Below, one piece after another: positions 861-43,416 of a stretch of 64,000 nucleotides of DNA (position 1 is the stretch's first letter; each line of letters starts with the position of its first letter). Below the pieces are notes generated by a model. The model was not told the origin of the DNA. It did not search any database and saw only the letters and a list, made by a program, of their open reading frames with translations. The translations under genes were made by a program, and so were the position numbers. Location: assembly GCF_014203955.1 (NCBI RefSeq), contig NZ_JACHKA010000001.1, positions 2,077,001 to 2,141,000 of the forward strand, written 5' to 3'. Source of the stretch: Sphingobium lignivorans. Lineage in GTDB: Bacteria > Pseudomonadota > Alphaproteobacteria > Sphingomonadales > Sphingomonadaceae.

Positions 861-879
861 TATCACTATTATAGTGATA
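861..879. promoter_or_regulatory. palindromic operator-like site upstream of the lysis cassette
   Basis: TATCACTATTATAGTGATA is a perfect palindrome around TTA. It fills the only gap between the tail gene and the holin, and it is one of about 18 related elements spread over the prophage. It probably binds a phage regulator controlling lysis genes; the function is inferred from position and recurrence. Confidence 0.6.
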
Positions 880-909
880 TTTCCTCCGTGAAAGCGGAGA
901 ACTGCAACC

Positions 910-1179
910 ATGAGCTTTATCGATCGCATCCGGGATCGGATGGCCGATGGATGGGAGACAGCATACCGCTGGGCGTCCATCCGTATTTCAGCCGCAGGCC
1001 TGACCATCTTCAGCGTTCTGGCGGCGTTCCCGGGCCTCGTCTCGGAGATGTGGAATGCGCTGCCGCCTCCGCTGCGGGACCGTCTTCCGGACAACTTCGG
1101 CTACGTTGTGGCTGCCGTCATCTTCGCCGGCACGATCGCCGGTCGCCTTCACAAGCGGAAGGATCGCAACGATGGGTGA
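910..1179 (+). CDS. putative holin (small membrane protein)
   Basis: 89 residues. Two hydrophobic segments (about 27-45 and 66-80) are separated by a short Pro-rich turn, and the C-terminus is basic (HKRKDRND). The pattern fits the short holin-like proteins that precede endolysins in alphaproteobacterial phages. The start at 910 has GGAG 10 bases upstream. The stop overlaps the endolysin start by 8 bases (ATGGGTGA). The role as the pore that times lysis is inferred from topology and position. Confidence 0.65.
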   Translation: MSFIDRIRDRMADGWETAYRWASIRISAAGLTIFSVLAAFPGLVSEMWNALPPPLRDRLPDNFGYVVAAVIFAGTIAGRLHKRKDRNDG

Positions 1180-1672
1180 GCCGCTGAGCCCCAAAGGCGC
1201 AAAGGTCGTCAAGGCCACGACCACCTCCGGAGCCTTGATCGCATTGGCGATGGCGCTCGCGGTGCCGACCATCGAGAAGTGGGAGGGGACGAAGACGACT
1301 CCCTACCGCGACGTGGTCGGCATCTGGACGGTTTGCACCGGCGAGACGCGCGTCAAGATGCGCACATACACCAAGGCCGAATGCGAGACGATGCTCAAGA
1401 GCACCCTCGACAACGAATTCGCGCCCGCCGTGCGCAAGGCCGTCCCGAAGATCGTCGAACATCCGCACGCATACGCGGCGTCCATCAGTCTCTCCTACAA
1501 CATCGGCAACGCGGCCTTCGCTCGCTCGACGGTGGCGCGGCGTTTCAATGCCGGCGACTGGAAGGGGGGCTGCGACGCGTTCCTGATGTGGAACAAGGCC
1601 GGCGGCCGCGTCGTCCAGGGTCTGGTCAATCGCCGCCAAGCTGAGCGCAAGCTCTGCCTTACGGGTCTGTAA
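1172..1672 (+). CDS. phage endolysin, GH24 lysozyme, SAR type
   Basis: 166 residues that would cleave the glycan of peptidoglycan. Glu38 (WEG), Asp47 (PYRD) and Thr53 (IWT) reproduce the E-8-D-5-T spacing of the T4/P21 lysozyme triad. A weakly hydrophobic Ala/Leu-rich segment at residues 20-32 fits a signal-anchor-release helix, so export would use Sec and the holin would trigger activation. The start is chosen at 1172, where GGAAGGA lies 10 bases upstream and the ATG overlaps the holin stop. The longer open frame upstream is holin coding in another frame. Confidence 0.88.
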   Translation: MGEPLSPKGAKVVKATTTSGALIALAMALAVPTIEKWEGTKTTPYRDVVGIWTVCTGETRVKMRTYTKAECETMLKSTLDNEFAPAVRKAVPKIVEHPHAYAASISLSYNIGNAAFARSTVARRFNAGDWKGGCDAFLMWNKAGGRVVQGLVNRRQAERKLCLTGL

Positions 1673-2136
1673 TGAGCCCCATCCTCCTGCGCTTCCTGCC
1701 CCACGGACTGGTCGCTGTTGCCGTCATCGGCGCGTATCTATGGATCGACCATCGCGGCTATGAACGCGCGACACGGGATCGCGAATTCGAGCGCCAGGTC
1801 ACAGCGCTCATGCTGACGCGCGCCGCGCGCGACGTCGAACAGAACCTCGGCGCCTCCATGGCGAAGCGCGACGAAGAATATGCGGCGCAGCGTCGCTCCA
1901 TCGAAACCGTTCGAACCACCCATCAGTCCATTATCACGAAGGAGATCGGCCGAGATGCGCGCCTCTCTGATCCTGCTCTCGGCATTACTGACGAGCTGCG
2001 GGAAGCCCTCAACGCCGCCCGCCGGGAGACTGGCGCCTGTGCCCCCACCGCTGCCGGCGGAATTCGCTGCGCCCTGCCCGCCCCTGACGGAACTGGCCGG
2101 GAAGAGCATCGGCGAACTGACGCAGGCGGACTTTGA
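1672..2136 (+). CDS. Rz-like inner-membrane spanin
   Basis: 154 residues: an N-terminal transmembrane helix (about 9-26), then a long charged, helical periplasmic region, the layout of i-spanins that fuse inner and outer membranes in the last step of lysis. The start overlaps the endolysin stop (TAATG). An outer-membrane lipoprotein partner is encoded in the +1 frame inside its 3' half. The C-terminal 30 residues are compositionally poor because the DNA there is also constrained by that partner. Confidence 0.75.
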   Translation: MSPILLRFLPHGLVAVAVIGAYLWIDHRGYERATRDREFERQVTALMLTRAARDVEQNLGASMAKRDEEYAAQRRSIETVRTTHQSIITKEIGRDARLSDPALGITDELREALNAARRETGACAPTAAGGIRCALPAPDGTGREEHRRTDAGGL

Positions 2137-2239
2137 CGCCGTGCTGATCTACGCGATATGCCAGAGGCGACACGCCGCTGTGGTCAACGCCTATGTCGGT
2201 GCACGACAGGCGGCCGTTGACTGGAACGCCGGTCAGTGA
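1955..2239 (+). CDS. Rz1-like outer-membrane spanin lipoprotein, overlapping Rz
   Basis: 94 residues starting MRASLILLSALLTSC. The lipobox LTSC places the lipidated Cys at residue 15, followed by a Pro-rich stretch typical of Rz1. AAGGAG lies just upstream of the ATG at 1955. It overlaps the Rz-like frame by 182 bases and runs on about 100 bases beyond it. With the i-spanin it should form the spanin complex. The longer open frame to 1880 adds no plausible signal sequence. Confidence 0.8.
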   Translation: MRASLILLSALLTSCGKPSTPPAGRLAPVPPPLPAEFAAPCPPLTELAGKSIGELTQADFDAVLIYAICQRRHAAVVNAYVGARQAAVDWNAGQ

Positions 2240-2547
2240 GCGAGGACTCGGTGGCGTATCAGGCCCTCAATCTCGCCCACAGCGTCGACCAGGCCGTGAA
2301 GAGCCACGAGGCGATATGCGCAGAGCGCTACGCCGGCATTCACAGCGCCATCAAGGACATCAAGGCTGTCCTATGGAAGGCCGGCGCCGGTGCGTTCGGA
2401 ATCATCCTGAGCATGCTGGCCTACCTGGTCGTGCAGCAGATCGCCACCAACGACAAGCTGCACGATGAGCGGGAAAGCGCGATCCGAGCGCTGCAACAGC
2501 AGCTCAGCGACGAACGCATGGTGAGGGCAGCGGAGAACCGTCGTTGA
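2236..2547 (+). CDS. small phage membrane protein of unknown function
   Basis: 103 residues from a GTG that overlaps the Rz1 stop (GTGA). There is an N-terminal amphipathic helix, one hydrophobic segment (about 48-67) and a charged, coiled-coil-like C-terminus. Lying at the end of the lysis cassette, it could be a second holin or an antiholin, but no family is recognised. Its stop overlaps the TTG start of the next gene. Confidence 0.6.
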   Translation: MSEDSVAYQALNLAHSVDQAVKSHEAICAERYAGIHSAIKDIKAVLWKAGAGAFGIILSMLAYLVVQQIATNDKLHDERESAIRALQQQLSDERMVRAAENRR

Positions 2548-6901: not shown

Positions 6902-7214
6902 GCGCCTGATCCATGCCGGCGCGGATGTCCGTCGCGCGCGCCCGGTAGAGGATTGCCACCATGCGATGGAACGACTCCGGATTCTCCGCGTCTTCGGATG
7001 CGACCGCATCGCGGTGGGCGGCGCGCTCATCGAACCAGCGCGCGATGGCGTCGCCGTCGAGCGGCTCCATGCCTTCGATGTCCTTCGCCCTGTTCTGGTA
7101 GAGCACAGCGACGCCGCGATAATAAGACGCACCGCGCGGATCGCTCTCGGCAAGACGCAGCGACGCCGCGCTCATATCGCGCAGCCAGCGCGCAACGGAG
7201 TTGTTTCGTGTCAT
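6894..7214 (-). CDS. hypothetical protein with an internal repeat
   Basis: 106 residues from MTRNNSVARW; the start at 7214 follows the AGGGATAA of a composite operator/SD element at 7217-7236. Two similar helices, YYRGVAVLYQNRAKDIEGM and FHRMVAILYRARATDIRAGM, indicate an internal duplication of about 55 residues. Helical and charged; no family recognised. Confidence 0.6.
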   Translation of the reverse strand: MTRNNSVARWLRDMSAASLRLAESDPRGASYYRGVAVLYQNRAKDIEGMEPLDGDAIARWFDERAAHRDAVASEDAENPESFHRMVAILYRARATDIRAGMDQAHA

Positions 7215-7216: not shown

Positions 7217-7236
7217 TATCCCTAAAATGTTGACAC
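7217..7236 (-). promoter_or_regulatory. composite operator / Shine-Dalgarno element
   Basis: On the minus strand GTGTCAACATTTTAGGGATA ends 2 bases before the ATG at 7214. The left half matches the phage-wide operator half-site and the right half provides the purine-rich ribosome site. Confidence 0.6.
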
Positions 7237-9312: not shown

Positions 9313-9783
9313 TCAGCGAAACATGCGAAAGGTCTGCCACCCGCCGGGCATCGACGGCTCCTCGGGCTGTTTGAGCAGCACCGGGTTTCCATGCTGAGCG
9401 GCGGCGCGCGCGATGTCGGTCGCGTCGCTCATCGTGAAGTCGGAACGCAGCAGCAGGATCGGCTCGGCCGGGATGAGGCGCGCCGGGTTCATGCATCGCA
9501 CCATGATGTGCGTGTCGTTCACTGCCAGCAGCTCGAAGAAGTGGCCGGCGAACGATGCATCGCGCTTGGGCACCAGGGTGTAGAAGCGCCCCGGCTTCAT
9601 GTCGTCATCGGACTTGGCGCGGCTGGGCTCTTCGACTGCCGTCACTACCGAATAGGCCGGCAGCGAACATTCGCCGACGTAGCTGCCGCTGAACATCTTG
9701 AGCAAGTTCGATGGTGTTGGCCACGCTTCATTCGGGAGCGCCACAGCGCTCTGCGTCTGTCGCTTGTGTTTCCGTTTCGCCAT
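9313..9783 (-). CDS. hypothetical phage protein
   Basis: 156 residues, beginning MAKRKHKRQ. The ATG at 9783 is chosen because AGGGA of the composite element lies 9 bases upstream; the TTG at 9792 would sit directly on it. A basic N-terminus precedes a beta-rich region (GRFYTLVPKRD ... HIMVRCMNPARL). Function not recognised. Confidence 0.6.
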   Translation of the reverse strand: MAKRKHKRQTQSAVALPNEAWPTPSNLLKMFSGSYVGECSLPAYSVVTAVEEPSRAKSDDDMKPGRFYTLVPKRDASFAGHFFELLAVNDTHIMVRCMNPARLIPAEPILLLRSDFTMSDATDIARAAAQHGNPVLLKQPEEPSMPGGWQTFRMFR

Positions 9784-10021
9784 GTTGTTCAATCCCTATA
9801 ATGTTGACACCTTGGTCACGCAGAAATATCGGCCTCGGTCGCGCGTGCGTCTCACGGATGAGAGCGCGAGGCCTATTCGAGATATCCTGACGCGCCAGAG
9901 CTTTGCCGTCGCGCATCTGAATATGGCACACGTCGTAGCCTTGACTGCGCAACAGGTCTGCGATCGAGTCACCGACACCCTGTTCGCTCGTGATCTCGAT
10001 CGTGATGTCGTAACCGCCCAT
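9728..10021 (-). CDS. small hypothetical protein crossing an operator element
   Basis: 97 residues with AGGGG 8 bases upstream of the ATG. The first 65 residues look like a real alpha/beta domain (YDITIEITSEQGVGDSIADL). The last 30 are encoded across the composite element at 9793-9810 and into the next gene. A repressor bound there would therefore also block this transcript. Confidence 0.5.
   Translation of the reverse strand: MGGYDITIEITSEQGVGDSIADLLRSQGYDVCHIQMRDGKALARQDISNRPRALIRETHARPRPIFLRDQGVNIIGIEQHGETETQATDAERCGAPE
9793..9810 (-). promoter_or_regulatory. composite operator / Shine-Dalgarno element
   Basis: The minus strand reads GTGTCAACATTATAGGGA, with AGGGA 9 bases before the ATG at 9783. 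It is nearly identical to the element at 26741-26758. Confidence 0.65.
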
Positions 10022-10289: not shown

Positions 10290-10368
10290 AATCACTATGA
10301 TGGTGACAGTATCAATCCTGAGCGGCGTTGTCACTATCAGATTCGACTTATCACTATGATAGTGATAA
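10290..10368. promoter_or_regulatory. divergent operator cluster
   Basis: Three related sites lie between divergent genes: ATCACTATGATGGTGACA (10291-10308), a half-site TTGTCACTATCAG (10329-10341) and the palindrome TATCACTATGATAGTGATA (10349-10367). They are spaced about 38 and 20 bases apart, which would suit cooperative binding by one regulator over both promoters. Confidence 0.6.
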
Positions 10369-10655: not shown

Positions 10656-13600
10656 TGTTCGGAACGCTCGGAACCGGTGGCGCCAGCGGCGTCTCGACGC
10701 GTGCGCGCAACGTTCGCGTCGCTGCGAACTCGACGGGCATCGTCTACACCGTGCGCCGCCTGCTCGGCAGCACCTCGACGATTTCTCTGACCGCAGCGAC
10801 CAATGCGAACCTCAGCCTCGACGGGGACAATATCGAGGCTGAGAGCGGCATCGCGCTGAACGAGACGCAGAAGGCTGTCGTCCGCGAAGAGCTCGGCGAT
10901 CAGGCCGTCGAATATGCGGTCAACGTCACCGGTATCCCGGCACTGGTCGATCTGACCATTTCTCCGGATACTGTCGTGAACGGCGTTGAGACCGAAATCG
11001 ATATCGTTGGTGCGGCCGCAGGCTCGACGATCACCGGAGCCGTGCCCGCAGGTCTCACGCTGAACTCGGGATCGCGCACGATCACCGGAACGCCGAGCGC
11101 CAGCGGAACATACGAAATCACACTGGTCGAAACGCTCGCCGGAGCCATCGGATCTCCGCGCGTCTCGACGATCACGCTCACCGTCGAGACGGTCGAACCC
11201 CCGGCCGCGATGACAATCGATACGATCACGCCCGGTCCCGGTTCGCTGACGCTCGGCGTCACGGAGGGTGCTGCGGGCGACGCTCCGATCACCGATCACC
11301 GAATTTACCTGTCCTTCGACGGCATTGATTTCTTCCTGTTCGACACGCGCGCCCCTGCCACCGAACACGAACTGACAGGCCTTGCTGGATATGGCGAAGT
11401 CCATATCTACGTCACCGCGCTGAATATCGGCGGCGAAGGTCCACACTCCAATGTCGTCAGCGGGACGCCAGGCGCTACGGCGCCTCTCGCAGGCACGCTG
11501 TCCCTCGAACCGGGGGTGGGTGAGATCATCGCGCGTCCGACCAGTGGCGATGACGGCGGTTCCCCTGTGACGCAGCGCGTTTTCTACATCGGCGATACGG
11601 CCGGCACTCTTGTTCGCCAGACTCCGACGACTGTCGGCGCCGAATACCCGTTCCTCTACGCTGGTGGCACGACCAAATATTTCGCGTTCGCCGATATCAA
11701 CATAGTCGGAGAGGGTGCGCTTTCCAATATCGTCAGCGAGACATCTCTGTCCTCGGCGACGATACCGGGCGCATTCACCGGACCGATGTGGGATCTGGAC
11801 AATGTCGGAGACGGGACGAGCCTGCGCGCCGTCATCAACGGCTATCCTTCTGCAAACGGCAGCGAAATCAACGATATCGAATACTCGCTCGACGGCGGCG
11901 TGACTGAAATCAGCAGTGGCGGAATCGTTGATTTCGATATCGGCTCGCTGGCAACCAGTGTTCCTCAAAATACGGTCATTCGCGCAGTCAATGGTGTCGG
12001 CCCCGGCCCATGGAGCGACGTGAAGACGCGCGCACCAGAAGTCGCAGTGGATGGTATGCGTCTCGGCATGGGGCTTGCTGGCGTTTCGAGCTTCAGCCGC
12101 GCCATTCCGTTCCGCAATATCCTGTGGACTGCTGCCAACTGGTCGAAGGACGAACCTTCGATGTCCGGCACGATCTCGCGCGGGTTCGTCACTGGCACGA
12201 CGGGCTATAGCGACACATTCTATCGCCTCATCAAGAAGGACACCGTCGCAACAGCTCTCAAGACGGGCACCTATCACGTCCTCCAGTTGACGGAAGGGCC
12301 GAAAGCGTCGCTTCGGGTAAACGTCTCTGGCCAGCCCAACGGCGCGTGGTACACGTCGGACTTCACCTTCGAGGTAGTCGGCGGGCAAAATCAGGTAATG
12401 CTCAACCTGCGCGGCGATCTGACGCACCAGATCGCTATTGTTCACGCCGACGACCTGGCGGCCTATCTTGCGGGCGGCGCAGACAAGGAGTTCACGCCCG
12501 AGTTTATCGAGGCGATCCAGGCGTGCAACCTGACCGGCCCGTTGCGCATGATGGACTGGCTGGGAACCAACGGAAACTTCATCCGCGAGTGGTCGCAGCG
12601 CACGGCTCTCACCGACAACGCCCGCTCGTTCGGCATGATGCCCTACGAGATCGTGATCGACGCCTGCAATCTGCTCGGACTCGATCTGTGGCTCAACATT
12701 CCCGGCATGGCGTCAAACGACTATGTCGCGAACCTCATTGCCTTGATCAAAACACGCCTCGATCCGGCGCTTAAGGTGCACGTCGAACTGCACAATGAAA
12801 TCTGGAACAACGGCGACGCGTTCCTGATGAATACGCTGTGGTTCACCTATGCGGACTACACGCGCTATAACACTCCACGGGTCGAAGGCGAGGACGCCTA
12901 TTATCTCGAAGGCCATGGCTTCGCCGATCTCGATCCGGTCGCGGTGTGGTATGGCCCGGCGCAGAACGGCACCTATAACATGGTGCTGCGGGTCATCGAC
13001 GAGAACAAGTTCCGCTTCCAGCGCAGCGGCTCTCCGAACCCTGCAAGCGGCACGGGGAATGCCGTTTTTGTGCGCACCAACGAAGCCGGCAAGTCACCGA
13101 ACCACAACGGCAACATCGGCTATGCTGTCCGGTCCATGGAAATCTGGGCGCTCTTCGACGATGAGGTTGATGGCCTCGGTCGTGCTCGCGTCATCCACGA
13201 GATGGGCAGCATGCTCACAAATTCATCGGGTGTCGCCAAGCAGCGCGTTCAGCAACCCGGCGCACTTGCGGCGCTCGATCACCTTTCGGTCGCGCCTTAC
13301 AACCGGACATACTATGTCTGGGGCAACTGCGTCGACGTGTCCGACGGTGCAATGACGCTGAAATCCTGGCTCGGTTTCCCGGGCAGCGGGTCGGCAGCGC
13401 GCACAATCAAAGCACTTGTCTATGAGCCCGGCAGCGTACCGACGACGCGCCAGCTCATCAATGGAACGGGTGCCGGCTTTGTTGCCACTCGCGATATCGC
13501 AGTCCCTGCCTCGCCTGCGGACTTCGTTGCCGGAACAGCAATCACTGGCCTCGACAATACGAAGGCCTATGAGGTGTTCTTCGTCTACGAGAGCCGCTGG

Positions 13601-16609: not shown

Positions 16610-17094
16610 GACGACTGTTCTCCTGCGAGAGAGCGGATGGCAGCAAGCATTGCCCTGTACGCCTCGCCACCAGTGCGGTATAGATCGGCGTTGGTGCCGC
16701 GCAGCTTCTCGTATGCATCCTCCAGAGCCTTTGCCCTGATTGATGAGGTGGCGGCAGAAAGGGCGGCGCGAGCAGCATCGCGGCAGAAGTCTGCGTAGTC
16801 GTAATTCAAACCGCCCTGCACATCATTGATCGCCTTCGCTACCTTCTCCACCAGCCCCTCATCCGGTTCTGCGGTAGGGGTGGAGGATGTGCGGGTGTTC
16901 CATGCGCGGACTGCATCAGCTTTGCTATGAAAGCCTTGGGCAAGCTCCTGCGCGCCACTGTAAAACGAGTGACAGCTGTGGCTGATCCCGAATTGGCGAT
17001 ACCATCCATAAGGGCCAAACACCTTTACGTTCTCACCACCACAGAACGGGCACGGAGATAGCTGCTCTACAGGCACCAATTCATTCTCGCTCAT
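16606..17094 (-). CDS. Lar-like (restriction alleviation) zinc-ribbon protein
   Basis: 162 residues from MSENELVPVEQLSPCPFCGG. The PCPFCGG knuckle, a later SCHSFYSGAQ and AVRAWNTR follow the layout of the Lar family, named after the Rac prophage protein that stimulates host modification and relieves type I restriction. About 95 helical residues are added after it. The restriction-relief role is inferred from the family; many Lar-fold phage proteins are untested. Confidence 0.65.
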   Translation of the reverse strand: MSENELVPVEQLSPCPFCGGENVKVFGPYGWYRQFGISHSCHSFYSGAQELAQGFHSKADAVRAWNTRTSSTPTAEPDEGLVEKVAKAINDVQGGLNYDYADFCRDAARAALSAATSSIRAKALEDAYEKLRGTNADLYRTGGEAYRAMLAAIRSLAGEQSS

Positions 17095-17804
17095 GACTGA
17101 TCTCCCTTGGGCTGGCGGATTTGGGCGAGGGCTTTGGTGGCGACATTGCGGCAATGGACAATGCTTCCGCCATCCATTGCGGATGGCGCAAATTTGATCC
17201 GCTCCAGCGTCTCCTCCGCTATAGCCAGCTTGCGCAGAGCGTCGTTCCATTCGTCAGCGAGCACGTCGTTCTTGCGATCGGCTTCGATCAGTGCTTGCTC
17301 AAGCTCGGCTTCTCGGGAGGATGCGAGGCGTTCGATGGCCTTTTGTAGGGCGCCGTTTTCAACATAAAGCCGCCATGATTTTTCCGCGTCGACATGCTGC
17401 ACATCGCGGCGAAGCTGGTTGCCTCGCCAGCCATCCCCATGGGCAGTTATGAAGATTTCGCGATATAGCTCCACCTCCTGCGCAGGCTTTGCGGGCGTGG
17501 CGACGCGGAGGCGATGAATGCATTCCGGCCTGTTGCAATCGCCCGAAAGTTTATCTGGCGCGAGCATTCCGCAAGCTTGGCATTTTGTTCCAAGCTCCAC
17601 TTGCGCAGGCTTTGGCCGCTCTGCAGGGACCGGTTCGGAGGCGGTATCGAGCGCGGCAATCGCGGCGTCGCGCGCGATATACCAGTCATGCATCCTGTCA
17701 GCCTCATTCGCGTAGCCGTCGGCATCCTCCGTGATGGTCAGATCGGCAGCCTGCTTTGCAATCTCGCTCTTGAGGCGCTTCATGGCCTCGGTGTGGTCAG
17801 TCAT
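17091..17804 (-). CDS. helical hypothetical protein with duplicated N-terminal cassette
   Basis: 237 residues. The first 17, MTDHTEAMKRLKSEIAK, are identical to those of the gene at 18269-18646. A CQACG...CNRPEC zinc motif sits near residue 85, and a long coiled coil (AIERLASSREAELEQALIEA) follows. The start overlaps the upstream stop by 8 bases (ATGACTGA). No family recognised. Confidence 0.6.
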   Translation of the reverse strand: MTDHTEAMKRLKSEIAKQAADLTITEDADGYANEADRMHDWYIARDAAIAALDTASEPVPAERPKPAQVELGTKCQACGMLAPDKLSGDCNRPECIHRLRVATPAKPAQEVELYREIFITAHGDGWRGNQLRRDVQHVDAEKSWRLYVENGALQKAIERLASSREAELEQALIEADRKNDVLADEWNDALRKLAIAEETLERIKFAPSAMDGGSIVHCRNVATKALAQIRQPKGDQS

Positions 17805-18276
17805 TTTTCCACCTCCCATCACTCAGACAACAAATCGTTGTGATCATCATCCCCGCTAACCCGAGGATCCCGAGAATCCCCAGCACCAGAGAGTCGAACG
17901 CAAAGCTCGCAGCCATGACGAGCGGCGCCAGATAGAACACATCGAACCAGCGCAGCCCGTCCCAGAGGCGTCTCGGCTCCCACATCAGTCCCTCTTCGCC
18001 GCACAGGGTATCGTCGGGGTGGCCCCATCGCCTGGTGCGCTGGAGCGGCACATGTGGCGGAATGCCCCCTTCACTGATGCCGTCGCTCTTGACGTAGTTG
18101 AGCACCCGGAACGCAGGGTTTGTGCAACGATGCCGCTCATAGCCCCTGAAGTCGTTCAGGTAGTAGCGGCAGGCCCGGCAAGAGTGCCTGGTTGCCGTCC
18201 GGTCGTCCTTGATCCGAGCCTCTGCGGCGTCAATCTTCGCTTTGAGATCGTCGAAGGCGCGTTCGGTATCAGTCAT
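17797..18276 (-). CDS. hypothetical membrane protein with Cys motif
   Basis: 159 residues. A charged helical N-terminus is followed by CRACRYYLND and RHRCTNP, which may bind a metal, then two hydrophobic segments (about 114-150; FYLAPLVMAASFAFDSLVLG). It ends in GRWKND, whose codons overlap the next start by 8 bases. Function unknown. Confidence 0.6.
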   Translation of the reverse strand: MTDTERAFDDLKAKIDAAEARIKDDRTATRHSCRACRYYLNDFRGYERHRCTNPAFRVLNYVKSDGISEGGIPPHVPLQRTRRWGHPDDTLCGEEGLMWEPRRLWDGLRWFDVFYLAPLVMAASFAFDSLVLGILGILGLAGMMITTICCLSDGRWKND

Positions 18277-18646
18277 TTTTCCACTCCGCCTCGGCGTACT
18301 CGCGCCATTTCGTGAGCAAAACTGGTAGCAGTTCTTCGAATTCGCCCACTGGGAAACAGCATCTCGGGCTTATACCATAATCTGCGAAGCCGAACGTGCA
18401 GAGCACCTCACGGAACATCTCGTGAGCCAGATTTTCGCCTTCGAGTGATCCCCATTTACGTTCCTGCATATTACTGAGAACGAGAATGGCCATATCGTCG
18501 AAAGCGGACGAATAGCTTCCGTAGAAGCACGGGAATATATTCCACGGATCGAAAACATCATCTGTCCCGCGCTGCCATCTTTCAGTCAGTTGCGGCTTTG
18601 CGATCTCGCTCTTCAGGCGCTTCATGGCCTCGGTGTGGTCAGTCAT
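18269..18646 (-). CDS. hypothetical protein sharing its N-terminal cassette
   Basis: 125 residues. Residues 1-17 duplicate those of the gene starting at 17804; the remainder (WNIFPCFYGSYSSAFDDMAI ...) is unrelated. It ends EWKND over an ATGACTGA junction. Probably a product of local recombination that joined one start region to different bodies. Confidence 0.55.
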   Translation of the reverse strand: MTDHTEAMKRLKSEIAKPQLTERWQRGTDDVFDPWNIFPCFYGSYSSAFDDMAILVLSNMQERKWGSLEGENLAHEMFREVLCTFGFADYGISPRCCFPVGEFEELLPVLLTKWREYAEAEWKND

Positions 18647-23323: not shown

Positions 23324-23688
23324 GGCTGAATTTCCTGCATCGATACGATGTTCGGCTTCATGGAAAGCCATGGGACACGCCAGCCGATCGTCTCGACCCG
23401 GTAGCGCTTTCCGACCTGGAAGCGCGCCTGCATCGAGGCGCTGTCCCACTTGCCGTTGAGAATGCCGCTGTCACGGTTCTCGAAGACTTCGCCGTTCGTG
23501 CCGAAGACGACATAGTAGCAGTCCATGTCATCGCCGCTCGCGTCGCACTGACGCTCTTTGCTGCTGACCGTGAAGTCGTGCGTCTCGCGATGATTGTTCT
23601 TCACCACAGCGAAACCTACGCCGCATAGCGCAACGGCTGCGAAGAGGATCAGCAGCCCCGTGCAGCCGAAGGGATCATCGGACCTCAT
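23320..23688 (-). CDS. membrane-anchored hypothetical protein
   Basis: 122 residues: N-terminal transmembrane helix (about 11-29), then a periplasmic beta-rich domain with Cys48 and Cys57 that may form a disulfide (QCDASGDDMDCYYVVFG). ATGA overlap upstream, GTGA downstream. Could be a superinfection or envelope-modifying factor; this is only a guess from topology. Confidence 0.6.
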   Translation of the reverse strand: MRSDDPFGCTGLLILFAAVALCGVGFAVVKNNHRETHDFTVSSKERQCDASGDDMDCYYVVFGTNGEVFENRDSGILNGKWDSASMQARFQVGKRYRVETIGWRVPWLSMKPNIVSMQEIQP

Positions 23689-24074
23689 GCCTCAACACTC
23701 CGCGAGCAGAACCGGCCGCGGCGCTTCGCCTTCTCGCGCGCACCCTCGTGCGGCTTTCCGGTGTGGCGGTTGATGTGGGCGGAGTCGGAGCGCGGCGAGA
23801 GCGTCTTGCGCACGCCCTTCGTCGCCCGGTCGAGCATCATGCCCATGAGCTGCTGCGCCTTTGCGCGCTTGTAGCTGACCTTCTTCCAGCCGCGCGTCGG
23901 ATGCAGTGTCTGATAGCCCGTTTCGCCGATGCGGGTCGGCTGCGGACGAACAGGCTTGTCTTCGCGCTCTGCCATCTTGCGCTCAAGGCGGCTCATGTGG
24001 CTGCCGGGGCTGTCCGGTACGATCTGGACCTTTGCATTCTTGCCGATCAGCGCCGAGTTCTTCATGTCGTCCAT
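23685..24074 (-). CDS. basic hypothetical protein
   Basis: 129 residues, rich in Lys/Arg and probably extended (SRLERKMAERED ... ARRGRFCSRSVEA-like basic C-terminus). It may bind nucleic acid. GGAAGG precedes the ATG at 24074; a second Met four residues later is possible. First gene of a unit whose upstream region has two operator sites. Confidence 0.55.
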   Translation of the reverse strand: MDDMKNSALIGKNAKVQIVPDSPGSHMSRLERKMAEREDKPVRPQPTRIGETGYQTLHPTRGWKKVSYKRAKAQQLMGMMLDRATKGVRKTLSPRSDSAHINRHTGKPHEGAREKAKRRGRFCSRSVEA

Positions 24075-24100
24075 CGGTTCAACCTTCCGCTATGCTTGGA

Positions 24101-24157
24101 ATCACTATAATCGTGATATGGCACCGACTCGCTGAGGCTGTCAACATAATAGTGACA
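24101..24157. promoter_or_regulatory. tandem operator-like pair
   Basis: ATCACTATAATCGTGAT (24101-24117) and TGTCAACATAATAGTGACA (24139-24157), centres about 39 bases apart, lie just upstream of the leftward gene starting at 24074. Both match the phage-wide element. Confidence 0.6.
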
Positions 24158-24278: not shown

Positions 24279-24398
24279 CGCGGTGCGCTGTCACGTTTAT
24301 AGGGATTGTCGCTTGTCATAGCGTTTCACCTGCCAGCGTTGCAACCGCGGGCAATAACCCCCGGATGGCCTTGCACGGCTGTCTGGGGGTTTCGCTTT

Positions 24399-25874: not shown

Positions 25875-25882
25875 GTTGATTT

Positions 25883-25898
25883 TCCCTCTCATGTTGAC
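25883..25898 (-). promoter_or_regulatory. composite operator / Shine-Dalgarno element
   Basis: Minus strand GTCAACATGAGAGGGA, 9 bases before the ATG at 25874. Confidence 0.55.
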
Positions 25899-25901
25899 GG
25901 G

Positions 25902-26732
25902 TTAGGCGAGCGGAGACCAAAGCAGGCCGGCCGCTGACATGTCAGCACGGAAGGCCTCAATGAGCGCCGGCAGTCGCGCCTCAAGCGCCGCTTTCAACTC
26001 GTCCGGTTCGGCGCTCAACTCTTCGTCAGTCGCATCCGGCCATGCGGCGGATTGGCGCGCCGCGTCTAGGTCGCGCGCCTTCCCCTCCCCTTCGCGATAC
26101 AGGGGAACCCATTTCAAAACCGGCGCTGGCGGTAAGTCTTCCTGCTGTCCGTCAAAGCCTTTTTCGAGGATGAACAACGGGACGGTTTCCGCGCCCCGAT
26201 ACATGTCACCGGTCGGCGTGCTCGAAATGCGAACCCCTTCCGCGTTGACCGCTTCAAGAGTCCAACACGGTTGTTTCGTGCGCCCATTGATGATTTGGCG
26301 CCGCTCTCCCGCCCGCAGGCCGTTATGGTCTCGATCGCCGGCATGGTAGATGGTATTGCTGATATAGTGCATCGGCCCGTCAGTACTGCACAAATGCCAT
26401 TTGATGAGATGCGCCAACTCCGGAAAAGTCTCGGCGATTGCCTCATGGTGACAGCCGATTGAACCGTCATCGATGCGGCGCGCGGCGCCCGAAATTTCGG
26501 CGGTTATTGCGAATGACTGGTGCCCATTTTTGCAACTGTCATCGAATCGAATGACCGCATGCAGTCGAGCATTTGGGCCATATATCCGCGCCTCTCGGCC
26601 GCGGCGCCCTTCGCTTATCCACTTTTGAGCGCTGAAAAGATGCGGCGCATCCGGGCGAACATGACGGGCATATAGGCGCCCATCAATTCCGTTGATCGCA
26701 TGGCGGGTTTCGTCGCTGAACGGCTTATTCAT
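25902..26732 (-). CDS. conserved phage hypothetical protein
   Basis: 276 residues. A WHLCSTDGPMHYISNTIYHA motif followed by GDRDHNGL is a signature I recall from uncharacterised phage proteins of similar length. The Cys and His residues could bind metal. Acidic helical C-terminus (EELSAEPDELKAALEARL). It starts just after the composite element at 26741-26758, whose AGGGAG is the ribosome site. Confidence 0.65.
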   Translation of the reverse strand: MNKPFSDETRHAINGIDGRLYARHVRPDAPHLFSAQKWISEGRRGREARIYGPNARLHAVIRFDDSCKNGHQSFAITAEISGAARRIDDGSIGCHHEAIAETFPELAHLIKWHLCSTDGPMHYISNTIYHAGDRDHNGLRAGERRQIINGRTKQPCWTLEAVNAEGVRISSTPTGDMYRGAETVPLFILEKGFDGQQEDLPPAPVLKWVPLYREGEGKARDLDAARQSAAWPDATDEELSAEPDELKAALEARLPALIEAFRADMSAAGLLWSPLA

Positions 26733-26740
26733 GTTTCATT

Positions 26741-26758
26741 CTCCCTATAATGTTGACA
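26741..26758 (-). promoter_or_regulatory. composite operator / Shine-Dalgarno element
   Basis: Minus strand TGTCAACATTATAGGGAG, immediately 5' of the ATG at 26732. Confidence 0.65.
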
Positions 26759-27410: not shown

Positions 27411-27598
27411 TTCACGCTCTTGGCGCGCAGGCCGTTGCCGACTCCGACATCGTCGAGATATTTGCCTTCGCCGTGGAAGGTCGCGAAGCCGGGATAACCC
27501 TGGAAGATCGCGCGGACTTCGCGAAGTGCAGCTTTGCGACTGAGCCATTCCGGCGAGCTGAGCGTCAGCGTGACGACAATTTCTTTCCGCTTGGTCAT
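27407..27598 (-). CDS. small hypothetical protein
   Basis: 63 residues, MTKRKEIVVTLTLSSPEW ... a small alpha/beta fold is likely. GGGGAT from the composite element at 27607-27624 lies 8 bases upstream of the ATG. Confidence 0.55.
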   Translation of the reverse strand: MTKRKEIVVTLTLSSPEWLSRKAALREVRAIFQGYPGFATFHGEGKYLDDVGVGNGLRAKSVK

Positions 27599-27606
27599 GT
27601 TCCAGT

Positions 27607-27624
27607 ATCCCCATTATATTGACG
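27607..27624 (-). promoter_or_regulatory. composite operator / Shine-Dalgarno element
   Basis: Minus strand GTCAATATAATGGGGATA, 8 bases 5' of the start at 27598. Confidence 0.5.
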
Positions 27625-27658
27625 ACTCGGATAGTCCGCGCCGTTTCCGTGACGCCAT

Positions 27659-27698
27659 TTGCTCTTAAATCTTAGCGTCTGTCAACATTATAGTGACA
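27659..27698. repeat. 40-bp direct repeat, copy 1, containing an operator
   Basis: Nearly identical (38 of 40) to 29401-29440. It begins TTGCTCTTAAATCTTAGCG and ends with TGTCAACATTATAGTGACA. Both copies lie at a junction of leftward units, so the whole 40 bp is probably one promoter/operator unit. Confidence 0.65.
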
Positions 27699-28626: not shown

Positions 28627-28876
28627 CTATGCCTTCCATTTGGCGAAGAGCGTGCCGATTGGGCGCCCCTTGCGGTCATGCAAATCAGCATCGCAGCATG
28701 TCGGCGCATTCGATATCCCATGATGCACGCTGCAGTGCTTGGCGGACGGTCGGCGCCAATGACGGCGCCAGCACGCTGAAATCCGGAATGCGTGCCATGC
28801 TGCGATGCTTATAGGCGGGCACGCCATTATGAGTTTGGCGCAGCAATCCGCCGCTATGATATTCAACCGTGAACAT
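28627..28876 (-). CDS. small phage protein, probably frame-disrupted
   Basis: MFTVEYHSGGLLRQTHNGVP starts at 28876 after a composite SD element and stops at 28685. In the +1 frame the DNA continues with DADLHDRKGRPIGTLFAKWK to 28627, which looks like genuine phage protein and contains the ribosome site of the next gene. One base removed around 28690-28700 joins the two parts. As sequenced the product is 63 residues. Confidence 0.5.
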
Positions 28877-28881: not shown

Positions 28882-28902
28882 TTATCCCTCTTGTGTTGAC
28901 AG
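28882..28902 (-). promoter_or_regulatory. composite operator / Shine-Dalgarno element
   Basis: Minus strand TGTCAACACAAGAGGGATAA, shortly before the ATG at 28876. Confidence 0.55.
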
Positions 28903-29371: not shown

Positions 29372-29400
29372 TTCGAATCACTCCGTTTCCTTGTCCCTAT

Positions 29401-29440
29401 TTGCTCTTAAATCTTAGCGCCTGTCAACATTGTAGTGACA
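29401..29440. repeat. 40-bp direct repeat, copy 2, containing an operator
   Basis: Matches 27659-27698 with two differences; includes TGTCAACATTGTAGTGACA at 29422-29440. Confidence 0.65.
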
Positions 29441-32791: not shown

Positions 32792-33138
32792 CACGCAAAC
32801 AGGAACTTCGAGAACTCTTCACGCGCAGGTGCGGTGCCGGGACTGAGTCGAACCGCGTATCCGTGGAGGGTCTCCACGCCAGCTTTGGACAGGCGGCCGC
32901 TGCGCATCCACTTATAGACGCCCTCCCGGCTCATCCCCATGTCTTCGGCGAGCTTGACGATCAGCAGGCCTCCCATCTCGTCGGCATAGGCCGGAAACAC
33001 GCCAACCAGGAAGTCATGTAGCGGCGTGCCTATCCACTGGCCGGACGAATATCGATTTGAAGCGTAAGCCACAGGCACCCCATCGTGAAAACTTGCGTCC
33101 TTAAGAGGGTAGATAGCCCATCTCGACGGCGTTGTCAC
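32791..33138 (-). CDS. HTH DNA-binding protein
   Basis: 115 residues. KLAEDMGMSREGVYKWMRSG is a clear helix-turn-helix. The only usable start is a GTG inside the operator core at 33132-33150 with no ribosome site, so it may be leaderless or start from a rarer codon. Coupled to the primase gene (TGATG). Likely an initiation or early regulatory factor. Confidence 0.65.
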   Translation of the reverse strand: MTTPSRWAIYPLKDASFHDGVPVAYASNRYSSGQWIGTPLHDFLVGVFPAYADEMGGLLIVKLAEDMGMSREGVYKWMRSGRLSKAGVETLHGYAVRLSPGTAPAREEFSKFLFA

Positions 33139-33171
33139 TATTTTGTTGATTGTGTCACGATAATGTTGATA
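33132..33171. promoter_or_regulatory. double operator between divergent replication units
   Basis: Two adjacent sites, TTGTCACTATTTTGTTGAT (33132-33150) and TGTCACGATAATGTTGATA (33153-33171), are 21 bases centre to centre. A rightward promoter TTGATT-17-ATATAT overlaps the second site. They sit between the leftward HTH/primase unit and the rightward replication operon. Confidence 0.65.
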
Positions 33172-33233
33172 TATACCCCTCGACTCGCCGGGTTGGCGGG
33201 CATCGATATTCGGAAAGAAGGGACACGGGGCTT

Positions 33234-36663: not shown

Positions 36664-36681
36664 TGTCAACATAATGGGGAT
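36664..36681 (+). promoter_or_regulatory. composite operator / Shine-Dalgarno element
   Basis: TGTCAACATAATGGGGAT abuts the ATG at 36682. GGGG is spaced better for the GTG at 36688, leaving the exact start open. Confidence 0.6.
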
Positions 36682-37026
36682 ATGACTGTGGCTTGCTGTC
36701 CGAATTGCGGCTTTGACATCACGAAGGACGACCTTGTCGAGCGAGATGGCTTCAAGCTGCACCCGCGCGAAGGGCTTGGATCATATCTCGGCCGTTCCAT
36801 CGGACTGACTGGCTCAGAACTCGTGCTGCTCCACACCATCGGACAAGCCAAGCGCACGATCAGCCGCGAGGCGCTGCACAACCGTGTTTCTGACTGCGAG
36901 ACCTTCCCTGAGATCGTGGGCACCTTCGTCTGCAAGATCCGCAGCAAACTGCGAACGGCCGGCGTTCCAGACCCCATCGAGACGGTGCGAGGCAAGGGAT
37001 ACCGTTGGAAGTCGGTGGCAGCATGA
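36682..37026 (+). CDS. OmpR-type winged-helix regulator with N-terminal zinc knuckle
   Basis: 114 residues. CCPNCGFD at the start; then a Trans_reg_C winged helix: TGSELVLLHTIGQ, ISREALHNRV, FVCKIRSKLRTAG and IETVRGKGYRW. No receiver domain is present. The gene is in the middle of the replication operon and preceded by an operator element, so it probably regulates the downstream genes. The start is ATG 36682 or GTG 36688. Confidence 0.75.
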   Translation: MTVACCPNCGFDITKDDLVERDGFKLHPREGLGSYLGRSIGLTGSELVLLHTIGQAKRTISREALHNRVSDCETFPEIVGTFVCKIRSKLRTAGVPDPIETVRGKGYRWKSVAA

Positions 37027-41055: not shown

Positions 41056-41522
41056 CGATCCTCGCGGTAACGGGTCATCGCCCCGACAAACTTGGCGGAT
41101 ATGGCCCCGAAGCAAAGGAGAAGCTCTGCAATTTTGCAGAAACCGTTCTCGCAGAGCTTTGCCCGAGGAAGGTGATCACCGGCATGGCGCTCGGTTGGGA
41201 CCAAGCGGTCGCAAAAGCGTGCATCCTGTTCGACATTCCCTTCGTCGCCGCCCTGCCATTCCCAGACCACGGCAGCAACTGGCCTGAAGAGGCTCGGCGC
41301 ATCCACGGGTTCTTGCTCGACCATGCCGTCGAAACAATCGTGGTGTGCCGCACCTATTCGACGACCGCCATGCAGCTTCGAAACATGGAGATGGTCGATC
41401 GCGCCGATGAGGTTCGCTCGCTTTGGGATGGATCGTCAGGCGGCACGGGCAACTGCGTGCGATATGCCAAGAGGCGTAAGAAATTCGCCGGAAATCACTG
41501 GAACGCATGGACCCAGCTCTAG
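41052..41522 (+). CDS. SLOG-superfamily protein (DUF1273/YspA-like)
   Basis: 156 residues from MTILAVTGHRPDKLGGY. GHRPDKLGGY, GMALGWDQAVAKAC and IPFVAALPF follow the Rossmann-like SLOG fold, which binds nucleotides or their derivatives; some members belong to signalling or defence systems. The role in phages is unknown. ATGA overlap upstream; overlaps the helicase start by 16 bases. Confidence 0.75.
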   Translation: MTILAVTGHRPDKLGGYGPEAKEKLCNFAETVLAELCPRKVITGMALGWDQAVAKACILFDIPFVAALPFPDHGSNWPEEARRIHGFLLDHAVETIVVCRTYSTTAMQLRNMEMVDRADEVRSLWDGSSGGTGNCVRYAKRRKKFAGNHWNAWTQL

Positions 41523-43030
41523 CTGCCGCCGGCCTCGTCGTTCCACCCTGGGTGATCGACCGCCGCGATATCCCCGTCCACCCTGCCCTGCTGCTCGACA
41601 TCGGGCTGCGGGACTATCAGTGGAACCTGCTGCTGCGGATCGCCGCGGCCATGCGCGCAGGCTACCGGCGAATTCTCGTCGTGGCGCCGACCGGCGCCGG
41701 CAAGACGGTGCTCGCCTCAGCGCTCATGATGTCGGCGGCGACGCTCGGGCTGACCTCTGAGTTCATTGTCCACCGCAAAGAGCTCATCAAGCAGACATCG
41801 CGCAGCTTCACCGAACGCGGGCTCGAACATGGGTTCGTCACCGCCGAAACGGCGTTCGGCTTCAACCCGCAGCAGATCACACTGGCCGGCGTGCAGACGC
41901 TCGTCACCCGGCTGCGCGATCTGTTCCCGCCGAACCTCGTCATCCTGGATGAAGCGCACCACGCCGTCGCCGGCACCTGGGAGCAAGTGCTCGAAGCCTA
42001 TGCTGGCGCCTTCATCATCGGCCTGACCGCCACGCCTCAGCGACTGGACGGTCGCGGTCTCGGCGCGCAGTTCGACATCCTGATCGAGGGTCCGACCGTC
42101 GCCGAATTGATCCAGCGCGGCTTCCTCTCTCGCTATCAGTATTTCGCCTTCGTGGCCGACGATATGAAAGGCGTCAGCGCAACGCAGGCCGAGGAGAAGG
42201 CGGAGCGCCCGAAGCTGATCGGCGACATGGTCGAACACTATCAGCGCCTCGCTGCCGGCGAACAGGGCATCATCTTCGGGCAGAACCGGGCGCACAGCCT
42301 CAAGATCGCCCAGATGTTCAATGCGGCCGGCATCAAGGCAATGCACGTCGACGGGTCGATGAGCCAGAAGGAGCGCGACTATTTCGACGACGCCTTCCGC
42401 GCGCGCGACATCACGATCGGCTGCAACGTCAATCTGTTCGGCGAGGGCTACGACGTCCCGGGCATCACATATCTCGGCATCGGCGCGGTCACGCGCTCGC
42501 TGGTGAACCATAAACAGTGGTGCGGCCGCGTGCTGCGACCGGACGGCACGATCGCTACGATCTGCGACCACGTCGGCAACGCTCTGCCGGTTGCTCTCGG
42601 CGGCCGCGGCCTTGGACTACCCGACGACGACGTGGAATGGTCACTGGAAGGCGGCGCCCGGCTGAAGACCGGTGTGAGCGACGACGCCATCTCGATCACC
42701 CAATGCCTCGACTGCTATCGGATATACCCATCATCTGCGCCGCAGTGCCCTGGCTGCGGCGACGTGCGCCGCGTGAAGACCCGTGCGCATATCCAGCAGG
42801 AAGCCGGCATTCTCACCAAGCTCGAGCGCGAAGAGCTCAAGAAGCGCGAGGCGGCCCGCCGCAAAGACGAAGAGCGCTCCGTCACCAGCTTCGAGCAGAT
42901 GGCGTCGCTCGGGCCGCGCGCGCGGCTACACCAACCCACGCGCATGGGCGTGGCGGCAGTGCAAATTCCGCCGCATCGCCATCCCAGGAAATTGGAGAAC
43001 GATCAGTGTCCAGTGAAAAATCCATCATGA
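41507..43030 (+). CDS. SF2 DEAH-box helicase, probably frame-disrupted near the C-terminus
   Basis: 507 residues as read. Motif I APTGAGKT (60-67), DEAH (about 148), LTATP (about 172) and QWCGRVLRP (about 336) are intact, followed by a CLDC...CPGC zinc motif. After about residue 468 the +1 frame reads RARGYTNPRAWAWRQCKFRR and stops at 43016, overlapping the next start. This is the usual C-terminus of such phage helicases, whereas the frame as read ends in unrelated sequence. One extra base in GGGCCGCGCG (about 42910-42920) explains it. It probably unwinds DNA at replication or recombination forks. Confidence 0.82.
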   Translation: MDPALAAAGLVVPPWVIDRRDIPVHPALLLDIGLRDYQWNLLLRIAAAMRAGYRRILVVAPTGAGKTVLASALMMSAATLGLTSEFIVHRKELIKQTSRSFTERGLEHGFVTAETAFGFNPQQITLAGVQTLVTRLRDLFPPNLVILDEAHHAVAGTWEQVLEAYAGAFIIGLTATPQRLDGRGLGAQFDILIEGPTVAELIQRGFLSRYQYFAFVADDMKGVSATQAEEKAERPKLIGDMVEHYQRLAAGEQGIIFGQNRAHSLKIAQMFNAAGIKAMHVDGSMSQKERDYFDDAFRARDITIGCNVNLFGEGYDVPGITYLGIGAVTRSLVNHKQWCGRVLRPDGTIATICDHVGNALPVALGGRGLGLPDDDVEWSLEGGARLKTGVSDDAISITQCLDCYRIYPSSAPQCPGCGDVRRVKTRAHIQQEAGILTKLEREELKKREAARRKDEERSVTSFEQMASLGPRARLHQPTRMGVAAVQIPPHRHPRKLENDQCPVKNPS

Positions 43031-43386
43031 ACCAGACGCTCATCGACGTGACGGCTCTGCCCGACACGATGGCGTACAGGCAGAATACCGGACAAGCCTG
43101 GCAGGGGGATGTCGTCGACAAGCCCGTCGGCCATTATGTCCGCATCGAACCAGGAATGAAGGTGCTGAGGAACGCGCGCCCGATCAGTTTCGGCATCCCC
43201 GGAGGCGGCGACATCGTCGGAACAAGGAAAGGCAAGGCGTTCCAGATTGAAACAAAAACGCTCACAGGTCCGCATGCGCAGCAACAAAAGACGTTCCAGA
43301 AAGTGTGGGAAAAGTGCGGCGGAATCTACATTTTGTGCCGCTCCTCCGCCGCAGCGCAAAAAGAATTGTTGACAAAAATCCCCTGA
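43006..43386 (+). CDS. VRR-NUC domain nuclease
   Basis: 126 residues from GTG 43006, with GGAG 8 bases upstream. PDTMAYRQNTGQAW, FGIPGGGDIVGTRKGKAFQI and ETKT contain the D...ExK active site of VRR-NUC nucleases, which include structure-specific and Holliday-junction-like enzymes. It ends the replication block and likely resolves DNA structures with the helicase. An internal ATG (43027) is an alternative start. Confidence 0.8.
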   Translation: MSSEKSIMNQTLIDVTALPDTMAYRQNTGQAWQGDVVDKPVGHYVRIEPGMKVLRNARPISFGIPGGGDIVGTRKGKAFQIETKTLTGPHAQQQKTFQKVWEKCGGIYILCRSSAAAQKELLTKIP

Positions 43387-43395
43387 AACGCCACT

Positions 43396-43416
43396 TTGTC
43401 ACCGAAATAGTGACAA
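43396..43416. promoter_or_regulatory. operator ahead of the repressor-like gene
   Basis: TGTCACCGAAATAGTGACA is near-palindromic and lies 14 bases before the GTG at 43429. A TTGACA at 43369-43374 is a possible -35. The site suggests autoregulation. Confidence 0.6.

What the first reader, a model, noticed from the sequence alone, without database searches (positions are those of the whole stretch)
861..43416. A phage-wide operator that doubles as the ribosome-binding site
About 18 copies of TGTCAACATTATAGTGACA or close variants occupy almost every real gap in the prophage (861, 7217, 9793, 10291, 10349, 24101, 24139, 25883, 26741, 27607, 27680, 28882, 29422, 33132, 33153, 36664, 43396). Around half are palindromic (TATCACTATTATAGTGATA type). 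The others keep the left half GTCAACAT but change the right half GTGACA to AGGGA or GGGGA, which then lies a few bases 5' of a start codon. One element thus seems to serve as repressor site and Shine-Dalgarno sequence, reminiscent of mycobacteriophage stoperators and start-associated sequences but in an alphaproteobacterial phage. The regulatory role is inferred.
Basis: partly seen in the sequence, partly recalled or inferred. Interest (0 to 1): 0.85.

Follow-up and report, generated by a model that had tools for sequence, protein, structure and literature searches.

The report
Phage repressor sites doubling as ribosome-binding sites
A dormant virus in a bacterial genome carries about 25 copies of one short mirror-image DNA signal, probably the landing site of its own off-switch protein, and in some copies a changed letter lets half of the signal also serve as the ribosome's docking site; related viruses do the same.

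Summary
The repeat is real and prophage-specific. A ~71-kb Casjensviridae-like prophage (the window holds its right 44 kb) carries 25 copies, 18 in the window. A matrix finds 24 of them; 30 shuffles give one hit in total. Ten copies are palindromes, 6 mixed, 8 have the right half changed to GGGA 5' of a start codon, 1 is weak. 'Almost every gap' is overstated: 17 of 41 gaps >=20 nt carry one.

Of 11 examined relatives with a homologous CI-like HTH protein (window 43429-44124), 9 carry 19-38 dispersed copies of a cognate palindrome, typically TTCAAC-N5-GTTGAA; 7 phages lacking the protein have 0 or 1 by a pooled matrix. A copy lies upstream of the repressor gene in 11 of 12 records. Orthologous genes tend to share sites.

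The SD overlap recurs: near a start, 32/54 downstream halves are SD-like versus 5/54 upstream halves; a separate set gives 14/28 versus 5/28. The commonest change is TGA->GGA at one operator position. Farther upstream the same half more often reads TTGAC, like a -35 box.

Best reading: a dispersed repressor-operator array in which one half-site is also read as -35 box or Shine-Dalgarno. Binding and any roadblock action are inferred.

The parts
861..879 (.). Operator, full palindrome (TATCACTATTATAGTGATA), 30 nt before the gene at 910
7217..7235 (-). SD-fused operator (TGTCAACATTTTAGGGATA), 4 nt between GGGA and the ATG at 7214
9791..9809 (-). SD-fused operator, 9 nt between GGGA and the ATG at 9783
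10290..10308 (.). Operator, imperfect palindrome in a divergent gap
10349..10367 (.). Operator, full palindrome in the same divergent gap
24100..24118 (.). Operator, imperfect palindrome 25 nt before the minus-strand gene 23685-24074
24139..24157 (-). Mixed operator reading TTGACA in gene direction (possible -35 box)
24289..24307 (-). Weak copy (score 17.7) with a GGGA-type half that does not face a start codon; doubtful
25881..25899 (-).
26740..26758 (-). SD-fused operator, 9 nt between GGGA and the ATG at 26732
27606..27624 (-). SD-fused operator (CGTCAATATAATGGGGATA), 9 nt to the ATG at 27598
27680..27698 (-). Mixed operator reading TTGACA in gene direction (possible -35 box)
28883..28901 (-). 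SD-fused operator (TGTCAACACAAGAGGGATA), 8 nt to the ATG at 28876
29422..29440 (-). Mixed operator reading TTGACA in gene direction (possible -35 box)
33133..33151 (+). Mixed operator whose end gives TTGATT, a possible -35 box
   Evidence: promoter read by eye
33153..33171 (+). Mixed operator filling the spacer of the possible promoter TTGATT-N18-TATATA (33146-33175)
   Evidence: promoter read by eye
36664..36682 (+). SD-fused operator (TGTCAACATAATGGGGATA), 7 nt between GGGGA and the GTG at 36688 (an ATG at 36682 would be 2 nt away)
43397..43415 (.). Operator, imperfect palindrome directly upstream of the repressor gene (possible autoregulation)
43429..44124 (+). CI-like HTH repressor, 231 aa; proposed binder of the array

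Best explanation
The elements are the dispersed operators of the prophage's CI-like repressor (window 43429-44124). Shown by sequence: one odd-centred palindrome, typically TTCAAC-N5-GTTGAA in relatives and TnTCACTAT-n-ATAGTGAnA / TGTCAACAT here, is scattered over Casjensviridae genomes that encode this protein, tends to keep its place before orthologous genes, and is usually present upstream of the repressor gene. Its downstream half carries a second signal that depends on place: 25 nt or more upstream of a gene it more often reads TTGAC in gene direction, with a -10-like match highest 17 nt further; close to a start codon it is often changed, commonly TGA->GGA at one operator position, into a Shine-Dalgarno sequence. 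In SD-fused sites the other half is usually the family's canonical TCAAC, as if compensating. Inferred: the repressor binds as a dimer; in the lysogen it blocks promoters at -35-type sites, and at SD-fused sites inside operons it obstructs passing RNA polymerase or silences leaky internal transcription (stoperator-like). When it leaves, the same bases in the mRNA recruit ribosomes.
For: Array is prophage-specific and non-random. Cognate arrays in 9 of 11 relatives by per-record matrices, 0-2 hits in reversed sequence. Co-occurrence with the HTH protein: pooled matrix 1-35 hits in 12 records with it, 0 or 1 in 7 records without it (absence, where four positives not in the profile all matched); 213 against 2 reversed hits in 58 loci with it. 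Site upstream of the repressor gene in 11 of 12 records and 32 of 37 loci, random windows 719 of 7400. Site sharing among 901 orthologue pairs: 98 both, 137 one, 666 neither. SD fusion: 32/54 against 5/54, 14/28 against 5/28, pairing energies, TGA->GGA in 27/82 near, 12/209 far, 6/82 upstream halves. TCAAC in the other half 35/46 against 98/209. TTGAC 56/209 downstream against 26/209 upstream in far sites.
Against: No binding, expression or footprint data. Two of 12 records with the protein (AH2, DSS3-P1) gave no seed palindrome and have 4 and 10 pooled-matrix hits; AH2 has no site within 250 bp of its repressor gene. The -10 signal is modest: offsets 3 and 28 also score 3.2 against 3.7 at 17, and the three own -35-type sites have poor -10 matches. 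The compensation signal is weaker by score: the upstream half of fused sites has median 13.9, the better half of far sites 13.6. In the second set the upstream-versus-downstream contrast near starts is only moderate (Fisher p 0.02). The weak site 24289 has a GGGA-type half that faces no start. Closely related phages are not independent, so the small p values overstate the evidence.
Confidence: 0.77

Rival explanations
1. Operators act only at promoters; those at start codons are there because compact genomes leave little room, and the SD overlap is tolerated economy without any roadblock or translational role.
For: Promoter-like far sites; compact gaps; nothing measured at SD-fused sites.
Against: SD-fused sites keep a strong upstream half that a ribosome-binding site does not need (35 of 46 TCAAC), and several own ones lie in gaps of about 20-50 nt between genes of the same direction, where a promoter has little room.
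Confidence: 0.35
2. The SD-fused subset works at the RNA level, as a translational operator or an SAS-like translation signal bound by a protein or RNA.
For: SAS of cluster K mycobacteriophages sit at start codons and contain the SD (PMC3203893, passages); the full palindromes can fold as RNA hairpins of -4.0 to -6.1 kcal/mol.
Against: The six own SD-fused copies folded are weak as RNA (-0.1 to -3.3); the same element occurs far from starts, in both orientations and in divergent gaps.
Confidence: 0.06
3. The array belongs to another phage or host regulator, and the CI-like gene merely travels with it.
For: Other DNA-binding genes exist in these phages, for example excisionases next to the repressor in relatives and a Trans_reg_C protein at 36682-37026 here.
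Against: No strong site in 360 kb of host DNA; co-occurrence with the CI-like gene and a site upstream of it. Co-occurrence of the other genes was not tested.
Confidence: 0.12
4. The repeats are chance, compositional, or copies of a mobile or terminator-like repeat.
For: The palindromes can fold as RNA.
Against: Shuffles and host DNA; site sharing among orthologues below 45% protein identity (72 both, 109 one, 531 neither).
Confidence: 0.01

Closest known systems
Cluster A mycobacteriophage (L5, Bxb1, TipsytheTRex) operators/stoperators
   Same: More than twenty repressor sites spread over the genome, in promoters and short intergenic gaps, in a temperate phage (PMC9283540 and PMC6550527, passages).
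   Different: Theirs are 13-bp asymmetric sites bound by a monomer and mostly in one orientation; here palindromes of about 19 bp with an unrelated CI-like protein, and with recurrent SD fusion. Transcription block untested here.
Phage P1 C1 repressor operators
   Same: 22 operators dispersed over the genome of a proteobacterial temperate phage (PMC8546580, passages).
   Different: P1's are 17-bp asymmetric; no SD overlap is mentioned in the passages I saw.
Streptomyces phage phiC31 repressor and its conserved inverted repeats
   Same: Dispersed palindromic repressor sites in intergenic regions (recalled; one search found no held paper).
   Different: Unrelated phage group; details not checked.
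Start-Associated Sequences of cluster K mycobacteriophages
   Same: Dispersed repeats a few nt before start codons that contain the SD, some with inverted repeats next to them (PMC3203893, passages).
   Different: The 13-bp SAS is asymmetric, nearly always at starts, of unknown function; here the same element also occurs as a palindrome far from starts.
CI repressors of lambdoid, 186 and TP901-1 phages
   Same: The N-terminal domain resembles TP901-1 CI and P22 c2 (weak E-values); the AH2 homologue gp70 was called similar to 186 CI (PMC3483164, passage).
   Different: Those switches use few clustered operators (recalled); the C-terminal domain here finds no close solved structure.

Membership tests
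Casjensviridae-type temperate phage | Polymerase and other core genes related to Casjensviridae | tested here: met
   Best tblastn matches of the polymerase are Rhodobacter and Sinorhizobium phages listed as Casjensviridae, 44-49% identity; helicase then HTH gene order as in 9 records, with one small ORF between in ours. No formal phylogeny made.
Casjensviridae-type temperate phage | Integrase present | tested here: met
   Phage_integrase, Phage_int_M and Arm-DNA-bind_3 in genome 2050514-2051746
Dispersed-operator immunity system (P1 C1 / L5 type) | Many copies of a repressor-type site over the phage genome, absent from the host | tested here: met
   25 sites; none strong in 360 kb of host
Dispersed-operator immunity system (P1 C1 / L5 type) | Sites bound by the phage's immunity repressor, which maintains lysogeny | not testable with these tools
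   Inferred from co-occurrence and upstream sites. Cluster RcD relatives are reported to give superinfection-resistant lysogens (PMC8601537, section 13).
L5-type stoperators | Asymmetric 13-bp site, mostly one orientation, bound by a monomer with two DNA-binding domains | tested here: not met
   Palindromic site of about 19 bp; CI-like single HTH
L5-type stoperators | Bound repressor stops transcription elongation | not testable with these tools
   Needs transcript mapping
Start-Associated Sequence | Asymmetric repeat containing the SD at nearly every copy, next to a start codon | tested here: not met
   8 of 25 own copies are SD-fused; 10 are palindromes
CI-like repressor | N-terminal HTH domain of CI/c2 type | tested here: met
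   phrog_2967 at E 6.9e-16; TP901-1 CI at E 0.004 by profile; weak fold matches to TP901-1 and P22 repressors

The most novel reading that the evidence does not exclude
Across a family of proteobacterial phages one palindromic operator is a three-way punctuation mark: by one or two base changes in its downstream half it is also the -35 box of promoters or the Shine-Dalgarno sequence of start codons, so a single repressor silences the genome at initiation and, roadblock-like, at individual gene starts inside operons.
Probability: 0.4. Interest if true: 0.82.

Novelty: new variant of a known kind. Interest (0 to 1): 0.7.

Why it matters
Dispersed repressor operators are known from a few phages. 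Here they appear in many Casjensviridae-type phages, and the binding site is repeatedly overlaid on the ribosome-binding site, often by the same base change, so one sequence must satisfy a DNA-binding protein and 16S rRNA at once. It gives annotators a way to predict the immunity regulon and specificity of these phages, and it makes testable how far a repressor site can bend to a second function before binding fails. Searches of the held library for Casjensviridae with repressor and operator (no paper) and with palindrom- (listing of 10 papers, none opened) showed no report of the array; most subscription papers are not held.

Tried and rejected
Exact-pattern scans of viral contigs with the own sequences gave 6 and 10 stretches with one site each; counted with my patterns, none of the 16 showed an array. 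The repressor was found only in the own genome among 100 relatives and among 385 class-level genomes, and by the own protein in no viral contig. A first family-wide motif fit was off-register and was redone. AH2, DSS3-P1 and pCB2051-A had no TCAAC-N5-GTTGA seeds; the pooled matrix later found 4, 10 and 0 sites. A first search for the repressor in control phages had no positive control and was repeated with positives. Naming the host through an aldehyde dehydrogenase was uninformative. RNA-level action was considered and set low. Recognition-helix covariation was only looked at by eye: homologues with E-T at two positions of the helix (RcSalem, RcCWillis, G485) have TCAC-type halves in part or wholly, most of the others TCAAC; suggestive, not tested.

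Left out of counts: sites mostly inside predicted genes or with no start within 400 nt; five loci treated as duplicates of records already used; pairs between the two Rhodobacter phages. The upstream-site test used 37 of the 70 loci, entered by hand. Of 16 records at hand without a repressor match (pCB2051-A and six contigs, most of them fragments; nine phages) seven were scanned for sites; two of those seven are not Casjensviridae. The own matrix hit list (25) is the 24 strong sites plus one weak coding hit at 13.0, and lacks 25881. My gene caller is simple; for the SD tests it ran without any ribosome-site term.
Full report
What was given.

The observation. All 17 listed places hold the element. 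With <=3 mismatches to TGTCAACATTATAGTGACA the window has 7 matches and 100 shuffles none; the whole 4.2-Mb genome has 11, all between 2051856 and 2110171. The window is genome 2077001-2141000, so the prophage extends 26 kb to its left: an integrase lies at 2050514-2051746, then terminase, portal and capsid genes; I take the HTH gene at window 43429-44124 as the right end (attachment sites were not sought). In 18 host stretches (360 kb) the best of four weak hits scores 10. Thirty dinucleotide shuffles of the prophage give one hit in total. Centres are intergenic for 22 of 25 against 2.5 expected; but only 17 of 41 gaps of at least 20 nt are occupied, so 'almost every gap' is too strong.

Anatomy (my classing, by eye). 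Half-sites come as C (TnTCACTAT and variants), D (TGTCAACAT and variants) and E (TCCCTAT or TCCCCAT, which is AGGGA or GGGGA on the other strand). Ten sites are C/C palindromes, six D/C, eight D/E, one is degenerate. In the eight, E is paired with a D-like half and faces a predicted start codon 4-9 nt away; the degenerate site 24289 breaks this rule, with an E-like half that faces no start. Three D/C sites (24139, 27680, 29422) read TTGACA in gene direction; the pair at 33133/33153 overlies a possible promoter TTGATT-N18-TATATA (by eye).

Relatives. The polymerase and the HTH protein lead to Casjensviridae: Rhodobacter, Sinorhizobium, Achromobacter, Klebsiella, Pseudomonas, Burkholderia, Marinobacter and Ruegeria phages, and two IMG/VR contigs at 55-56% polymerase identity. 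In the nine phage records looked at, the HTH gene follows a helicase gene. A de novo count of spaced pentamers brings up an odd-centred palindrome in most of the 13 records examined, typically TCAAC-N5-GTTGA. Matrices fitted per record give 25 sites in our prophage (24 strong plus one weak), 25 (G484), 22 (G485), 29 (RcSalem), 28 (AchV4), 19 (SS2019XI), 38 (RHph_X2_30), 32 (PS6), 24 (YMC16) and 32 (RcCWillis), against 0-2 in reversed sequence; AH2, DSS3-P1 and pCB2051-A gave no seed. A search of intergenic DNA alone showed AACA-type palindromic pairs in AH2 and none evident in DSS3-P1 or pCB2051-A.

Link to the protein. With one pooled matrix, the 12 records holding the HTH protein have 14 (ours), 24, 18, 1, 20, 4, 15, 35, 12, 10, 18 and 1 hits; the two records with one hit are Rhodobacter phages with a different half-site (TTCACATC). 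Seven records without it (pCB2051-A, BcepNazgul, Chi, Enc34, phiAxp-2, R7M, RHph_Y55) have 0, 0, 0, 0, 0, 0, 1. Absence of the protein was checked with a profile that found it in four records not used to build the profile (AH2, PS6, DSS3-P1, RHph_X2_30) and in none of the seven. In 58 loci of 9 kb or more around homologues (68 loci found in viral contigs, 2 in genomes) there are 213 hits against 2 reversed. Six of the 12 records supplied the pool and five loci are copies or near copies of pool phages, so those counts are not independent. A site lies within 250 bp upstream of the HTH gene in 11 of 12 records (not AH2), and within about 300 bp in 32 of 37 loci, against 719 of 7400 random windows. 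The protein looks CI-like: phrog_2967, TP901-1 CI by profile at E 0.004, TP901-1 and P22 repressor domains among the weak fold matches of a model with mean pLDDT 88.5; the best fold matches (E 0.0016-0.003) are a homing endonuclease and EspR.

Placement. Among 901 reciprocal-best gene pairs, a site from -10 to 60 nt upstream is shared in 98, present in only one member in 137, in neither in 666; odds ratio 15, and similar below 45% protein identity (72, 109, 531). The pairs are not independent. The major tail gene (phrog_807) has a site 18-22 nt from its start in our prophage and in 7 of 9 orthologues, with different sequence around it; an eighth (YMC16) has one at 1 nt and the ninth (PS6) none. 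The capsid gene shares its site with G484 only, of 8 orthologues.

SD fusion. Starts were called without any ribosome-site term. Within -3..11 nt of a start, 32 of 54 sites have GGA, GGG or AGG in the downstream half and 5 of 54 in the upstream half; at 25 nt or more, 17 of 119 and 10 of 119; at 12-24 nt, 3 of 41 and 0 of 41, and there 37 of 41 have a separate SD-like triplet in the leader. A separate set of 50 loci (five duplicates skipped) gives 14 of 28 and 5 of 28 near, 9 of 90 and 18 of 90 far, 0 of 23 and 2 of 23 between. Predicted pairing with the 16S tail (sequence recalled) agrees: -5.00 against -2.83 kcal/mol near, -2.43 against -3.09 far; second set -4.76 against -2.40 near, -2.11 against -2.39 far. 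The commonest single change is TGA->GGA at one position: 27 of 82 near, 12 of 209 far, 6 of 82 in the upstream half; in 21 of the 27 the 21-mer edge lies 5-8 nt from the start. In fused sites the other half is TCAAC in 35 of 46, against 98 of 209 in far sites, as if a strong half pays for the damaged one; by score the effect is small (median 13.9 against 12.6 for upstream halves of far sites and 13.6 for their better halves).

Promoter use. In far sites TTGAC stands in the downstream half in 56 of 209 and in the upstream half in 26 of 209; near sites 4 and 12 of 82. For 25 such far sites the mean match to TATAAT is highest at spacer 17 (3.68; 18 gives 3.08; other offsets 1.4-2.8, except offsets 3 and 28 at 3.2). 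The signal is modest, and the three own sites have poor -10 matches.

Mechanism. I take the array to be the operators of this repressor: promoter block at -35-type sites and an obstacle to transcription at SD-type sites inside operons. Only the sequence facts are shown. Cluster RcD phages, to which RcSalem belongs, are reported to give apparent lysogens resistant to superinfection (PMC8601537, section 13 read); AchV4 behaved as lytic but carries a lysogeny module (PMC7996906, passages).

Known kinds. L5-type stoperators (PMC9283540, PMC6550527), P1 C1 operators (PMC8546580) and cluster K SAS (PMC3203893) are the nearest; each differs in at least one feature in the passages I read. I found no description of this array: one search (Casjensviridae + repressor + operator) found 0 papers; searches gave listings of 10 papers each, none of them opened; one search (phage repressor + operator + 'overlaps the Shine-Dalgarno') found 0; the passages seen of the AchV4, AH2 and Rhodobacter papers name the HTH protein a repressor or CI-like but mention no such sites.

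Verdict. A real repressor-operator-type array, shared by many phages of this family, with recurrent operator/Shine-Dalgarno overlap: a new variant of dispersed-operator immunity, binding still to be shown.

Noticed in passing
window 27657-27679 and 29399-29421 (minus strand, just downstream of sites 27680 and 29422): The two mixed sites are followed by a shared stretch, cgctaagatttaagagcaaat, longer than the operator; G485 has a similar pair after its sites 34214 and 35293. Perhaps duplicated promoters.
   Followed up: no
RHph_X2_30 (L088-L091): A second dispersed element, GTAAC-N2-TGTGA, occurs 13 times besides the operator.
   Followed up: no
window 43429-44124: The best fold matches of the repressor model are a homing endonuclease (2ost, E 0.0016) and EspR, with Holliday-junction resolvases further down; the C-terminal part might have a nuclease-like fold.
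   Followed up: partly
G484 35202, AchV4 51260, YMC16 1483 (record coordinates): Operator-like palindromes inside a gene encode a shared FN..LKSP peptide by eye, so they may be explained by the protein sequence rather than by binding.
   Followed up: no
RcSalem 13498-13536 and RcCWillis from 16813: A strong operator is followed, 18 nt on in RcSalem, by a second weak palindrome with GGAG near its centre just before the start codon: perhaps another way of overlaying an SD on an operator.
   Followed up: no
window 17091-17804 and 18269-18646 (minus strand): Two neighbouring predicted genes begin with the same 15 residues MTDHTEAMKRLKSEI.
   Followed up: no
genome 2068867-2068885 (L022 11867-11885): A near-perfect palindromic copy lies inside a tail assembly gene.
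   Followed up: no
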